Source: Deltaproteobacteria bacterium (GTDB lineage: Bacteria; Desulfobacterota; Desulfuromonadia; Desulfuromonadales; Geopsychrobacteraceae). Taken from it: a stretch of 64,000 bases of DNA. Positions 59,455 through 64,000 of the stretch are shown one piece after another. Each line of letters starts with the position of its first letter. Within the stretch, counting starts at the first letter, position 1. Under the pieces are notes generated by a model. It had not been told where the DNA came from and searched no databases. It saw only the letters and a program-made list of their open reading frames with translations. The position numbers and the translations under genes were made by a program. The DNA lies in contig JAJRQB010000013.1 in the NCBI GenBank assembly GCA_024280485.1, positions 1 to 64,000 of the forward strand. Direction: 5' to 3'.

Positions 59455-59605
59455 ATGCATACTTAAAAAAAATGGCCCCTCCCTTGGTAATTACTGGGAA
59501 AACCAAGAACCCCTATTTAGCATTAAATCTCACGAACTCAATACCTCACAACTGGGCAAACCGGAACCACTGCCCCTTCTTGGAACCTACCTAAATGGAT
59601 GTTAA
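59455..59605 (+). CDS. Small leader ORF of the cassette, apparent frameshift at its start
   Basis: AAGGAA (59442-59447) precedes ATG 59455, but that frame stops after three codons (ATG CAT ACT TAA). Shifting by one base at 59461 opens a frame of some 45 codons: LKKNGPSLGNYWENQEPLFS, and on to GKPEPLPLLGTYLNGC before the stop at 59603-59605. This frame overlaps the ATPase start at 59595 by 11 bases, as expected for translational coupling, and the ATPase itself has no ribosome site. The run of eight A just after the shift makes a sequencing slip or a programmed +1 frameshift possible. No family is recognised. Confidence 0.5.
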
Positions 59606-60464
59606 TTTCGGGGATATAAGAACAGATTTCCAAGGTTTTCTTAAGCTGGTCATGCTTCATAATCAGATTAACTCCCCTTCCGCCGACAACTACACTCTTC
59701 ACTTTCCTGGATGGATTGACGCAAATATGTGCGCACCCCTTGGTGCCATAATAAAAAAGAAGCGCCTTGAGGGAAGCAAGTTTAAAATTGGAAAAATAAG
59801 TGCGGGATCAAAAAAAATCTTTCTGAAGAATCATTTCTTAACACAATTCCAGCTACCACCAATACATGACACACACAAGACAACAATAAAATATAAATGG
59901 TTTGACACAGAAAAAAATGCTAAGGAAGAATTCTCAGGATATGTAGATAGGCACTTCAAAAGTGGAGAAATGGGAATTCCAGACATGTCCCCACTGCTCA
60001 TTACTAAATTTCGACAGAGCCTGTATGAAGTTTTTCTGAATTCCTTAGAGCACTCCAACAGCAAACATGGCGTTTTTGCTTGTGGGCAATACTTCCCTCA
60101 GCAAAATCGACTAGATTTTTCTATAGCTGATTTAGGGCACGGAATTGCCCAAAATATTTACAAAGAACTTGCGACTTCACTTTCGCCTGAGAGTGCTATT
60201 CTTTGGGCCCTAAGTGGCAATACAACACGCCGCGGTAAGCCCGGAGGGCTTGGACTTAAGCTTATTCAAGACTTTTTGGAATTAAATAATGGCCGAATGA
60301 TCATAGTTTCACACAAAGGGTATGGTTGTATTGAAAATGGACAAGTCACCACAAAAAGTTTCACAGAGCCTTTTCCAGGCACAGTCGTTACAATAGAAAT
60401 AAATACTGCGGACAAAAGTTCATATCGTCTGAAGGATGAGCTTAATCCAGAAGATATTTTTTAG
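59595..60464 (+). CDS. STAS-like plus GHKL (histidine-kinase-type) ATPase protein
   Basis: A 289-residue protein. The C-terminal half is a GHKL ATPase: N box YEVFLNSLEHSNSKHG at about residues 142-157 (Glu, Asn), G1 box ADLGHGI at about 176-182, and G2 box GKPGGLGLKLIQDF at about 212-225. It lacks a phospho-acceptor His and dimerisation domain. The N-terminal part contains FPGWIDANMCAPLGAI, which resembles a STAS-type strand-helix. This is the layout of anti-sigma-factor-like or partner-switching kinases. The next gene encodes a STAS-like protein, so this may phosphorylate or bind it (inference). The gene has no ribosome site of its own and overlaps the leader ORF. A+T-rich. Confidence 0.82.
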   Translation: MDVNFGDIRTDFQGFLKLVMLHNQINSPSADNYTLHFPGWIDANMCAPLGAIIKKKRLEGSKFKIGKISAGSKKIFLKNHFLTQFQLPPIHDTHKTTIKYKWFDTEKNAKEEFSGYVDRHFKSGEMGIPDMSPLLITKFRQSLYEVFLNSLEHSNSKHGVFACGQYFPQQNRLDFSIADLGHGIAQNIYKELATSLSPESAILWALSGNTTRRGKPGGLGLKLIQDFLELNNGRMIIVSHKGYGCIENGQVTTKSFTEPFPGTVVTIEINTADKSSYRLKDELNPEDIF

Positions 60465-60473
60465 GGAGACATT

Positions 60474-60821
60474 ATGATCAAAGTTATACTTTCAGAATTT
60501 GCACTAAAAGGAATTTGTGTTTCCTCTGAAGACGGTGAGAAAGTTTTTGAGGTAATAAAGAAACACTTGAATGACGGGCGTATGGTTGAAATTTCTTTTT
60601 TTGGAGTTGAGGACATTACGACTTTATTTCTCAACACAGCAATTGGAAAACTGTATGAAGTTTTTAGTGAAGATGAGTTAAAAGCTAAAATGTCTGTTGT
60701 TGAGGCTAGTGGTCACGATCTATCGACTTTAAAAAACTCTGTGGATAGAGCTAAGGAATATTTTAAAAATCCAGGGAAATTTCATACTGCGATAGATGAG
60801 GCCTTCGACGATGACCATTAG
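60474..60821 (+). CDS. DUF4325 STAS-like protein
   Basis: A 115-residue protein of the DUF4325 (STAS-like) group. Typical features are DGRMVEISFFGVEDITTLFL in the middle, where the STAS loop and helix fall, and an acidic end (EAFDDDH). DUF4325 proteins regularly sit next to GHKL ATPases. GGGAG precedes the ATG, 9 bases after the ATPase stop. By analogy with SpoIIAA it would be the switch protein of the pair. The 3' end overlaps the PIN gene. Confidence 0.8.
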   Translation: MIKVILSEFALKGICVSSEDGEKVFEVIKKHLNDGRMVEISFFGVEDITTLFLNTAIGKLYEVFSEDELKAKMSVVEASGHDLSTLKNSVDRAKEYFKNPGKFHTAIDEAFDDDH

Positions 60822-61359
60822 CAATGTTGAACACTACACCTTCTCATCAACAGATGCCTTGTTTTTTGATACAAACATATGGCTTTCAATTTATGGACCT
60901 GTACCATACCTGAGAAAACGATCTCAAAAATACTCATCATGTATGAGGGATGTCTTGGTGGCAGGAGCTAAAATCAATATTGATTCCATGATAATATCTG
61001 AATTCATCAATAGATTTTCAAAGATTGAATTTGATCGGTTCAGTGGAAAGTTCAGCGGGAAATATAATAGCTACAAGGCCTTCAGGAATTCAAAAGACTT
61101 CAAGCCAACTGCTGAAGAAATATCGATTGCGGTTGGGAAAATATTAAAAAATTGCACCAAGTGCGAGATAGAATTCTCTGTAATCGATATGGGGGATTTG
61201 ATGAATGAATTTGCAAATGGCGGTGTTGATTTCAATGACCAAATGCTAGCTGAATTATGTGCTAAACAAGGATTTACATTAGTGACGGATGATGGTGATT
61301 TCAAGTGTAGTCAAATTGAAATATTAACAGCCAATCCGAGATTGCTGATCAAAAAATAA
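60811..61359 (+). CDS. PIN-domain ribonuclease-like protein
   Basis: A 182-residue PIN domain. The acidic positions are in place: Asp 20 in FFDTNIW, Glu in MIISEFIN, Asp in VDFNDQMLAEL and the Asp pair in VTDDGDFKC. PIN proteins of the VapC kind are metal-dependent RNases. There is no antitoxin gene of the usual VapB kind before it; instead the preceding gene is the STAS-like protein, whose stop it overlaps by 11 bases. ATG 60811 is preferred to 60796 because GAGG is 8 bases upstream. Confidence 0.83.
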   Translation: MTISNVEHYTFSSTDALFFDTNIWLSIYGPVPYLRKRSQKYSSCMRDVLVAGAKINIDSMIISEFINRFSKIEFDRFSGKFSGKYNSYKAFRNSKDFKPTAEEISIAVGKILKNCTKCEIEFSVIDMGDLMNEFANGGVDFNDQMLAELCAKQGFTLVTDDGDFKCSQIEILTANPRLLIKK

Positions 61360-61894: not shown

Positions 61895-62695
61895 ATGGAT
61901 CAAGTTCTGCCACGAGAAAATAATTATGACACCACTATTAATATTATCGGTGGGTTAAGAGACTGTGGCCTTCTTTATGGGGCGATTGAGTCTCATTTCA
62001 ACAAAGACGACTCTCTCCGTGAGCTGATATCAGAGAGAAATGAATTCAACCTTAGAACCGAGAAAAGTCGAACCCGTATCGAACGAGCTATCAATGAATC
62101 TTTCCTCGATTTCAAAAGCCAAGATCACGAGGATTTAATTCAAAGCATATTCACTGGAAATGCACCTCTCCATGAAAAGCAGTTGATCCTGCTTTGGCAG
62201 TTTACTTTGTCCAATCGACTGTTCCGGGAAATCACTTTGCAGGTGTTTATCAAAGGGTATTTTTCAGGAAGAATAAATCTGACAAAAGACGACATCATTG
62301 CTTATTTGAAAGAATTCCTGGTCCAAAATAAGCAGCTTGAGCTCGACTGGTCCGAAAGCACAATAAGCACTCTGTCAACCAAGTACCTTAATCTCATGAC
62401 GAAGTTTAACTTTCTTGAGGGGGCTCGCAAAAAATCATACCGACATACGAACATTTCATCAGAGTCGTTGGTTTTATTCCTTTATTTTACCCAATTGTAT
62501 GCGCCAAATAGCAGCAACATTTTGACAAATGATTTGCTGCCCCTCTCTTTTGTGACGCAAGAAGATATTCAGGATCGACTCAAGAAGCTTTCAATTAAAG
62601 GCTTATTTAATATGAATTTCAACGGAGTTGCTTTGAACATCGAGTTAACCCATAGCTTTAAGGGGATCTGTAATGTCCTATATGGCCGACCATAA
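61895..62695 (+). CDS. brxA: BREX protein BrxA (DUF1819)
   Basis: A 266-residue DUF1819 protein, the first gene of type 1 BREX loci. The layout fits: an N-terminal segment NIIGGLRDCGLLYGAIESHF, a helical middle (QLILLWQFTLSNRLFREITL), and ELTHSFKGICNVLYGR at the C-terminus. BrxA is a small DNA-binding-like helical protein needed for defence in several BREX systems. It overlaps brxB by 23 bases. The ribosome site is weak. Confidence 0.88.
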   Translation: MDQVLPRENNYDTTINIIGGLRDCGLLYGAIESHFNKDDSLRELISERNEFNLRTEKSRTRIERAINESFLDFKSQDHEDLIQSIFTGNAPLHEKQLILLWQFTLSNRLFREITLQVFIKGYFSGRINLTKDDIIAYLKEFLVQNKQLELDWSESTISTLSTKYLNLMTKFNFLEGARKKSYRHTNISSESLVLFLYFTQLYAPNSSNILTNDLLPLSFVTQEDIQDRLKKLSIKGLFNMNFNGVALNIELTHSFKGICNVLYGRP

Positions 62696-63221
62696 GCAAA
62701 AATTCGATGACCTGCAATACCACATAAAAAATCAAAATCAGTTAAGGAGGCAGGCTAATGGAGGCAACAGTATCCTTTTTTCCTGTCTGCCGGACGAAGA
62801 GCAACTCTACATAGAGCAAGCAAGAGAGCTGTATCAGGAAAAAGCTGAGTTTATAGATGTGAGCAAGTTGCTTGTGAAATTCATTGATGAGGAAGGGTGG
62901 GACTCCTTTGCTGAGTATTATCATGACTTCCAAAGCACGCCCCATTTAATTTTTCGATCAGATGATCCCTCCACGGACTTGTTTGACATGATTATTGATG
63001 AAATTGAAATGTCCAGCAAGAATGACAAGATTCCATTCTTGGTAAGGACAGGTTGTCTCTTCGGGACAGGTATCGAAAATGTAAATATTATGGAGCACAA
63101 AACGGTCATGAATCTTCGACACCCGTTAGTGATCTTCTACCCCTCCCGAGTTGAAAACGACAACCTCTATTTTCTAAATTTTAAGCATGCATCGAAATAT
63201 CGCTGCACACTGGTTAATTAA
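62673..63221 (+). CDS. brxB: BREX protein BrxB (DUF1788)
   Basis: A 182-residue DUF1788 protein, second gene of BREX. Recognisable are KFDDLQYHIKNQNQLRRQAN near the start, the LPDEEQLYIEQARELYQEK helix, and RTGCLFGTGIENVNIMEH followed by PLVIFYPSRV. BrxB is thought to be a structural partner of BrxC and PglZ. ATG 62673 follows AAGGGG and lies within brxA. Confidence 0.9.
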   Translation: MSYMADHKQKFDDLQYHIKNQNQLRRQANGGNSILFSCLPDEEQLYIEQARELYQEKAEFIDVSKLLVKFIDEEGWDSFAEYYHDFQSTPHLIFRSDDPSTDLFDMIIDEIEMSSKNDKIPFLVRTGCLFGTGIENVNIMEHKTVMNLRHPLVIFYPSRVENDNLYFLNFKHASKYRCTLVN

Positions 63222-63232
63222 GGGGCTTACTA

Positions 63233-64000
63233 ATGACTAAGATACATGAAATTTTGACTCTGGATCTCCAGGAAGACATTAAGAATGTCATCGACCTGGA
63301 AGACCGCTCCGAATTGGAAATTCAGCAGGAGCTGGAGTCTTATATCGTTACTGAAGGTATTAGCCGCCATCTTTACAACTTCACCAATCAGTTCACCTCA
63401 AACATAAAAGAGACTGGTGTTTGGTTATCCGGGTTTTACGGTTCAGGAAAGTCTTACTTTGGGAAAATGCTGGGCTATATCTTAGACAACCCAGTCATTA
63501 ACGGCACTCCCGCGAGGGATCGATTCATGCTGCGGCTAAAGGGTGTGGCCGATGAAAATCTGATTGAGAATGCGATACGCAATTTGGACTCCATCAACAG
63601 TCGTGTCGTCTTTCTGGATGTGGCCAAGCAGAATACAGATCGTGGCTTGGCTTTCACCCTGTTTGCCAACTTTTTGAAAAATCTTGGGTTCAGAGATGAT
63701 ATTTACGGATATATAGAGTTTGATCTCTTTATCGAGGGGAAATACGAAGAGTTTAAAAGCAAGGCAAAAGAGCTAGAAGGCAAGGAATGGAGTGAACTTA
63801 AAAAAAGCAACCGGCTAGTTGCCAAAGTCATGCGCAGTGTTTTTGGTTCAATGGGCTACAGCGAAGACGACTACAAAGACACTTATAAGGTTTACGACTC
63901 TGCTATCAATGATTTTTCTGCTAGCAAGTTCAAGGCTGAATTGGAGAAATATTTAAAATATAGTCCTGATGAGACACTCGTCTTTGTTTTTGATGAAGCT
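63233..64000 (+). CDS. brxC: BREX P-loop ATPase BrxC, cut by window edge
   Basis: The first 256 residues of BrxC, a very large (about 1200 residues in complete systems) P-loop ATPase of BREX. A conserved N-terminus with LYNFTNQFTSNIKETGVWLS is followed by Walker A in SGFYGSGKSYFGKM at about 68-80; the window ends at the Walker B TLVFVFDEA. The ATG at 63233 has AAGGGG upstream and is 11 bases past brxB. The remaining BREX genes (pglX methyltransferase, pglZ phosphatase, brxL or equivalents) would lie beyond the window. Confidence 0.93.
   Translation, partial: MTKIHEILTLDLQEDIKNVIDLEDRSELEIQQELESYIVTEGISRHLYNFTNQFTSNIKETGVWLSGFYGSGKSYFGKMLGYILDNPVINGTPARDRFMLRLKGVADENLIENAIRNLDSINSRVVFLDVAKQNTDRGLAFTLFANFLKNLGFRDDIYGYIEFDLFIEGKYEEFKSKAKELEGKEWSELKKSNRLVAKVMRSVFGSMGYSEDDYKDTYKVYDSAINDFSASKFKAELEKYLKYSPDETLVFVFDEA

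What the first reader, a model, noticed from the sequence alone, without database searches (positions are those of the whole stretch)
59455..61359. ATPase-STAS-PIN cassette beside BREX: possible partner-switching RNase defence module
Seen: a GHKL ATPase with a STAS-like N-terminal part, a DUF4325 STAS-like protein and a PIN nuclease, tightly packed (9-base gap, 11-base overlap) behind one promoter, in an A+T-rich stretch next to brxABC. Known: GHKL kinases and STAS proteins form partner-switching pairs (SpoIIAB/SpoIIAA, RsbW/RsbV), and PIN domains cut RNA. Inference: infection or another signal alters the ATPase-STAS pair, which releases the PIN RNase. No VapB-type antitoxin is present, so the STAS/ATPase pair may be the brake. 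I know of no named system with this trio.
Basis: partly seen in the sequence, partly recalled or inferred. Interest (0 to 1): 0.82.

Follow-up and report, generated by a model that had tools for sequence, protein, structure and literature searches.

The report
VapKSC toxin switch beside BREX
Three tightly packed bacterial genes beside a virus-defence system make up a recently described switch, in which a sensor kinase is thought to unleash an RNA-cutting toxin when DNA is damaged; the kind is known, but this copy sits on an untested branch of it.

Summary
In detail: a GHKL kinase (59595-60464), a DUF4325 STAS protein (60474-60821) and a PIN nuclease (60811-61359), with a 9-base gap and an 11-base overlap. 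It is no chance neighbourhood: of 78 different loci found with the kinase alone, 75 carry all three genes, and the other three stop at a contig end. They span 21 named phyla. The trio is not unnamed: it is VapKSC (EMBO J, June 2026, PMC13373217), a toxin-antitoxin system with anti-phage activity. VapS (STAS) holds VapC (PIN); VapK is thought to sense single-stranded DNA and phosphorylate VapS, freeing VapC. The window copy passes every sequence test that gave an answer: Thr50 at the phospho-acceptor position (Ser/Thr in 88 of 88 rows), intact kinase and PIN residues, STAS and SpoIIAB-like folds in VapK. The only PDB chains that its VapS and VapC match at E<0.4 are Escherichia VapS and VapC (9z7o). 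It lies across a deep split from that tested copy. Added here: vapKSC on a plasmid and in temperate-phage contigs, and, outside the window, a sister triad common in phage contigs whose third gene is not a PIN but a small, often membrane-anchored protein.

The parts
59595..60464 (+). vapK: STAS-GHKL kinase, 289 aa, no N-terminal HTH
   Evidence: HATPase_c; model pLDDT 92.4 matches SpoIIAB over 94-273 and STAS protein TM1442 over 1-87; E145, N149, H153 kept in 86 of 86 rows
60474..60821 (+). vapS: DUF4325 STAS antitoxin, 115 aa, presumed phospho-acceptor Thr50
   Evidence: DUF4325 E 3.7e-14; Escherichia VapS 9z7o_A E 3.9e-10 from the single sequence; Ser/Thr at this column in 88 of 88 rows
60811..61359 (+). 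vapC: PIN-domain RNase toxin, 182 aa, starts 11 bases before the end of vapS
   Evidence: Escherichia VapC 9z7o_C E 1.5e-5 from the single sequence; acidic residues kept
61895..64000 (+). neighbour, not part of the trio: brxA, brxB and the start of brxC (BREX)
   Evidence: PADLOC BrxA 7.6e-45, BrxB 9.2e-49, BrxC 2.4e-105

Best explanation
The trio is a vapKSC operon. VapS binds VapC and keeps the RNase off. When phage infection or other DNA damage makes single-stranded DNA, VapK is switched on and phosphorylates VapS on Thr50; VapS lets go of VapC, which cuts RNA and stops growth. Shown here: gene order, domains, conservation of the acceptor, kinase and PIN residues, and kinship with the solved Escherichia VapS-VapC complex. 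Shown by others in Escherichia: VapC toxicity, VapS antitoxin activity, its loss with the S48E mimic, and about 2-log protection against one phage that needs VapC D28, VapS S48 and VapK F54. Inferred by those authors: ssDNA activation of VapK and direct phosphorylation of VapS. Inferred here: that the window copy does the same, perhaps as a second line behind the adjacent BREX.
For: Trio in 75 of 78 loci found with the kinase alone. Window VapS and VapC, as single sequences, match Escherichia VapS and VapC in the PDB and nothing else at E<0.4. Acceptor column S 78, T 10 of 88 rows; kinase E145, N149, H153 86 of 86; PIN D15, N17, D135, D138, D156 81 of 81 letters, E59 80 of 80. VapK model: SpoIIAB Z 12.5, STAS TM1442 Z 10.0; VapS model: RsbV Z 7.6, RsfB Z 6.9, SpoIIAA Z 6.8, below SLC26A11 STAS Z 8.2. 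Published function.
Against: No function was tested for any member of the window's branch. Window and Escherichia differ much: 29 of 112 aligned residues identical in VapS, 30 of 174 in VapC, and a VapC tree puts them across a deep split. The acceptor is Thr here, Ser there. The VapS C-terminal helix, needed for inhibition in Escherichia, is predicted at low confidence (residues 102-115 under pLDDT 50). The equivalence of W40 to the ssDNA residue F54 was not tested. The kinase step is unproven even in Escherichia.
Confidence: 0.88

Rival explanations
1. A stress or addiction toxin-antitoxin module whose kinase answers some other signal, with no role in defence; it persists by mobility and addiction.
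For: Antitoxin before toxin with an overlap; copies on a plasmid and in phage contigs; wide scatter over phyla.
Against: Pure addiction needs no kinase, yet the kinase's ATP-site residues are kept in 86 of 86 rows. Neighbours of relatives are rich in defence families (against 98). The tested member protects against a phage.
Confidence: 0.08
2. An accessory part of the neighbouring BREX system, regulating brx genes or serving as its effector.
For: The trio and the brx genes lie in one A+T-rich stretch on one strand, 535 bases apart. CapK-CapS, a relative, does regulate adjacent immune operons.
Against: VapS lacks the wHTH with which CapS binds DNA (115 aa). Of the PADLOC families listed for neighbours of relatives, PglZ is met by 2 of 135 proteins and most are not BREX (only 25 of 108 families are shown).
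Confidence: 0.03

Closest known systems
VapKSC (Escherichia sp. E4736, PMC13373217, PDB 9z7o)
   Same: Three genes in the same order; STAS-GHKL kinase without HTH; STAS protein with conserved Ser/Thr and short C-terminal region; PIN toxin with the same acidic residues.
   Different: Far apart in sequence (29 of 112 and 30 of 174 identical), across a deep split in the VapC tree; Thr instead of Ser as acceptor; next to BREX; function untested.
CapK-CapS (PMC13373217)
   Same: STAS-GHKL kinase plus STAS substrate with a conserved acceptor serine.
   Different: CapK has an N-terminal HTH and CapS a wHTH and represses transcription; the window proteins have neither, and the output is an RNase.
SpoIIAB-SpoIIAA and RsbW-RsbV
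   Same: Kinase fold and STAS fold; partner switching by phosphorylation.
   Different: Their output is a sigma factor; here a PIN protein is co-encoded and the kinase carries a STAS domain of its own.
VapBC toxin-antitoxin
   Same: PIN-domain toxin behind its antitoxin gene.
   Different: No VapB; the antitoxin is a STAS protein, released (as proposed) by phosphorylation.

Membership tests
VapKSC | Three-gene operon vapK-vapS-vapC | tested here: met
   order K-S-C in 74 of 75 complete relatives
VapKSC | VapK with STAS and GHKL domains and no HTH | tested here: met
   Model matches TM1442 over 1-87 and SpoIIAB over 94-273 of 289 residues, leaving no room for an N-terminal HTH
VapKSC | Absolutely conserved Ser/Thr in the VapS STAS domain (Escherichia S48) | tested here: met
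   Window T50 aligns with S48; S or T in 88 of 88 rows
VapKSC | Short C-terminal VapS helix reaching the VapC active site | tested here: inconclusive
   Residues 97-115 are present and predicted helical at 100-112, but under pLDDT 50 from 102 on; no complex was modelled
VapKSC | VapC PIN active site (Escherichia D28 and other acidic residues) | tested here: met
   Window D20 aligns with D28; D, E, D, D, D kept
VapKSC | Aromatic residue of the proposed ssDNA site in VapK (Escherichia F54) | tested here: inconclusive
   W40 column is aromatic in 85 of 85 letters (W59, F25, Y1), but the Escherichia VapK sequence was not at hand to align
VapKSC | VapC toxic, VapS neutralises it, operon protects against phage, VapK phosphorylates VapS | not testable with these tools
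   Needs bench work
CapK-CapS | HTH on the kinase and wHTH on the STAS protein | tested here: not met
   Kinase starts with its STAS domain; VapS is 115 aa with DUF4325 only
VapBC | VapB-type antitoxin gene beside vapC | tested here: not met
   The gene before vapC is DUF4325; after it the ORF list of 60 aa and more has only a 76-aa ORF before brxA, which was not scanned and shorter ORFs were not listed
SpoIIAB-SpoIIAA / RsbW-RsbV | Kinase also binds and inhibits a sigma factor | not testable with these tools
   No sigma-factor gene among the ORFs adjoining the trio; binding cannot be tested here

The most novel reading that the evidence does not exclude
The VapK-VapS pair is a general damage switch that has been joined to at least two kinds of output. 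Besides the PIN RNase of the window, a large sister family keeps a kinase and a STAS gene but has, where vapC would be, a gene for a 141-213 aa protein that often begins with a membrane segment. It would be a kinase-STAS-membrane triad by which a prophage, on sensing DNA damage or a second phage, frees a membrane effector. It lies outside the window. I found no description of it in the held library (searches; words transmembrane, membrane protein and DUF4325 not in the main text of PMC13373217); much literature is not in that library.
Probability: 0.5. Interest if true: 0.72.

Novelty: new member of a known kind. Interest (0 to 1): 0.38.

Why it matters
The locus is a good test of how far that mechanism reaches, since it lies across a deep split from the one tested copy and has Thr for Ser at the acceptor. 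The wider point is modularity: the same kind of kinase-STAS switch occurs with a PIN RNase in many phyla, on a plasmid and in phage contigs, and, in a sister family, with what looks like a membrane protein.

Tried and rejected
Rejected: chance adjacency (75 of 78); VapBC (no VapB seen); CapK-CapS (no HTH or wHTH); BREX accessory (neighbours of relatives vary). The claim that the trio has no name was dropped after reading PMC13373217.

Led nowhere or against the reading: PADLOC on the three proteins (only DrmA, E 5.8e-4, for the kinase) and NCBIfam (generic histidine kinases at E 0.019 and worse, VapC family at E 0.005, no member model). Viral scan with the single window kinase (9 stretches, no relative); with alignment A5 one relative. 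Promoter and terminator scan not above shuffles. Foldseek with the VapS model: no match at E 0.001, macrodomains rank above STAS proteins; the second look gives SLC26 and RsbV-type STAS domains, best Z 8.2, below or near what unrelated models reach. 9z7o is not in the 50 rows shown of either list, and may not be in that library (cut at 8 April 2026). Pfam on 10 of the 78 third proteins of the sister triad: nothing over a cut-off; Pfam also does not recognise two of its kinases at E 0.001, whose kinship rests on PHROGs and on my profile (E 6e-15 for L137).

Limits. One search kept the best 80 of 118 relatives, so the set leans to the window's branch. L043 and L058 were dropped as repeats of L003 and L004. 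Loci with a gene split in two (PIN: L029, L049, L100, L106; kinase: L090, L104) were left out for that gene and wholly from the overlap count. That count takes, for each locus, the start closest to a zero gap; a start giving exactly 11 bases is available in 38 of 69. The neighbourhood test used 135 of 137 ORFs (two dropped for the residue cap) from 32 of 78 loci; it counts families, not loci; its control is 44 ORFs of one genome. The tree used 36 chosen rows and warns of long branches. One search kept 80 of 192 relatives, chooses phage contigs by its collection, and holds near-copies (71 different STAS sequences). Membrane segments were called by a simple hydropathy rule only.

Full report
Observation. 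The window holds three genes on the + strand: a 289-aa kinase-like ATPase at 59595-60464, a 115-aa DUF4325 STAS protein at 60474-60821 and a PIN protein at 60811-61359 (182 aa). Pfam gives HATPase_c E 7.4e-6, DUF4325 E 3.7e-14 and PIN E 9.5e-5, the last just under its cut-off. The stated start, 59455, is an ATG with a stop three codons on. A promoter is not shown. GC is 0.376 in the trio against 0.511 in 1-58530.

Conserved trio. I searched with the kinase alone, so that STAS and PIN genes were not asked for. In named genomes 149 stretches matched, 118 were relatives, the best 80 were kept. Two repeat loci already held, leaving 78. My profiles find all three genes in 75 of 78. In the other three (L052, L063, L105) the contig ends 42, 226 and 1 bases after the last gene match. 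The order is kinase-STAS-PIN in 74 of the 75; L033 has STAS-PIN-kinase, with no kinase frame in the 1.3 kb before its STAS gene. The loci fall in 21 named phyla (one more locus has none), two of them archaeal with one MAG contig each, where mis-binning cannot be excluded. An 11-base overlap of STAS and PIN genes is the commonest spacing, 33 of 69 scored. In 395 genomes of the window's phylum, 22 have a kinase match at E 0.001. Of the 23 matched places other than the window, six carry all three genes (L003, L004, L005, L006, L007, L024; L024 with stops in the kinase), two carry kinase and STAS but no PIN (L008, L009), and fifteen show no STAS match to my profile in the 1.5 kb fetched on either side, though at one of them, L014, DUF4325 is met below its cut-off.

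It is known. Full-text search led to Chambers et al., EMBO J, June 2026, PMC13373217 (listing; abstract and outline; introduction and first results; sections 7, 11, 12, 13, 14 and 17 read; passages; supplements not seen). They name the trio vapKSC, count 289 cases in IMG with 103 (36%) within 10 kb of another immune gene, solve the Escherichia VapS-VapC complex, show VapC toxicity, VapS antitoxin activity and its loss with S48E, and about 2-log protection against phage Bas42 that needs VapC D28, VapS S48 and VapK F54. Activation by ssDNA was shown for the related CapK; for VapK it rests on a predicted structure and on F54A. A search for the word VapKSC finds this paper only. Whether the window locus is in their list I could not see.

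Is the window trio a member? Its VapS alone finds Escherichia VapS 9z7o_A at E 3.9e-10 and its VapC alone finds 9z7o_C at E 1.5e-5; the next chains are at E 0.44 and worse. VapS T50 aligns with the published acceptor S48; that column is S in 78 and T in 10 of 88 rows. Kinase E145, N149 and H153 are kept in 86 of 86 rows. In the PIN set (82 rows) D15, N17, D135, D138 and D156 are kept in all 81 rows with a letter and E59 in all 80 (numbers count from 60826, add 5 for the true start). The kinase model (pLDDT 92.4) matches SpoIIAB over 94-273 (1til_E, Z 12.5, rmsd 2.9, 135 aligned) and the STAS protein TM1442 over 1-87 (1vc1_A, Z 10.0, rmsd 2.0, 86 aligned); that SpoIIAB stands first among GHKL proteins fits an anti-sigma-type kinase. 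In the VapS model (pLDDT 82.2) T50 begins a helix, as the paper says of the acceptor in CapS; fold matches are STAS domains of middling Z. VapK W40 lies in a column that is always aromatic (W59, F25, Y1); that it equals Escherichia F54 is inferred. So it is a member by every sequence test that gave an answer; the functional tests are for the bench.

How it differs. A VapC tree of 36 chosen rows puts Escherichia VapC with L005, L006, L007 and L024 on one side of a branch (SH-aLRT 100) and the window with the other rows on the other; the tool warns of long branches (L026, L027). Window and Escherichia share 29 of 112 aligned residues in VapS and 30 of 174 in VapC. The tested copy speaks for the window's branch only by analogy.

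Neighbourhood. Beyond the window the contig goes on with brxC, pglX, pglZ and brxL, a set like type I BREX (the type is recalled). In 32 relatives with long flanks, 135 neighbour ORFs within 4 kb match 108 PADLOC families at E 1e-20; the 25 listed include PglZ, AriA, PtuA, HEC-01, AbiLi, Ppl, type IIG and type III enzymes. 44 ORFs from window 1-57300 match 2 families, mad2 and mad3; mad3 also accounts for 3 neighbour matches. This agrees with the published 36% but is rough: families are not loci, and the control is one genome.

On mobile elements. The trio lies on Deinococcus gobiensis plasmid P5, where it is annotated as ATP-binding, STAS-like and PIN; on MT837343, a contig labelled phage from human faeces, behind two internal virion proteins; on an IMG/VR contig about 0.5 kb behind holin and endolysin (L108); and in Streptococcus phage Javan172 between a repressor-like gene and the integrase, where the PIN gene is not annotated. 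The paper's main text does not hold the words phage-encoded, plasmid-borne or mobile, and prophage only for another system.

A sister triad. DUF4325 genes without a PIN led to loci with a kinase, a STAS protein with the motif SSFLEEAFGG and a small protein with one or two hydrophobic segments: L133 and L137, Marinobacter phage AS1, a Helicobacter prophage and Leptospira plasmid p4; a Novosphingobium plasmid has kinase and STAS and an unannotated frame that reads alike. The Francisella prophage of PMC7924643 lists a 293-aa protein, a DUF4325 protein and a TM protein in a row (passages only). A viral scan with that STAS alignment gave 192 relatives, 80 kept. In 76 of 80 a kinase match lies upstream; in 78 of 80 an ORF follows (141-213 aa, one of 387; the other two end at a contig end); 48 of the 78 have a hydrophobic segment near the start; none of the 80 loci matches my PIN profile. 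In 71 different STAS sequences one serine is invariant, 71 of 71. PHROGs puts the four kinases tried, the window's among them, in phrog_3364, function unknown. That this is a membrane-effector version of VapKSC is inference; nothing shows that its third protein is toxic.

Verdict. The window copy is a new member on an untested branch. The open lead is the sister triad.

Noticed in passing
L133, L137, L141, L142, L143 and viral loci L147-L226: A sister triad: kinase, DUF4325 STAS protein (SSFLEEAFGG) and a small, often membrane-anchored third protein instead of PIN; 76 of 80 viral loci have the kinase upstream and 78 of 80 a third ORF.
   Followed up: partly
L145:7986-9840 (Streptococcus phage Javan172): A vapKSC in a temperate phage genome beside the integrase; the PIN gene is open but not annotated in the record.
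   Followed up: partly
L008:1108-3130 and L143:4923-7725: Kinase-STAS genes followed by a nucleotidyltransferase and a HEPN/HepT gene: in L008 directly, in the Leptospira plasmid behind the membrane-type third gene. Linked or chance, not tested.
   Followed up: partly
L119:688-1707, L121:676-1710 and 12 other loci with open frames of 342-362 aa: DUF4325 fused behind a HATPase domain in one protein, with a winged HTH in front in L121; only these two of 14 were read.
   Followed up: no
L109:17732-18353 (own contig, beyond the window): A HepT-like and a nucleotidyltransferase gene pair on the minus strand behind brxL.
   Followed up: no
L033:6949-8852: The one complete locus with the order STAS-PIN-kinase; the contig ends 94 bases after the kinase match.
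   Followed up: no
L024 and L010: Broken copies: a second trio in G078 with stops in the kinase, and in G254 a kinase frame cut short beside a gene that reads like a type I specificity subunit (by eye).
   Followed up: no
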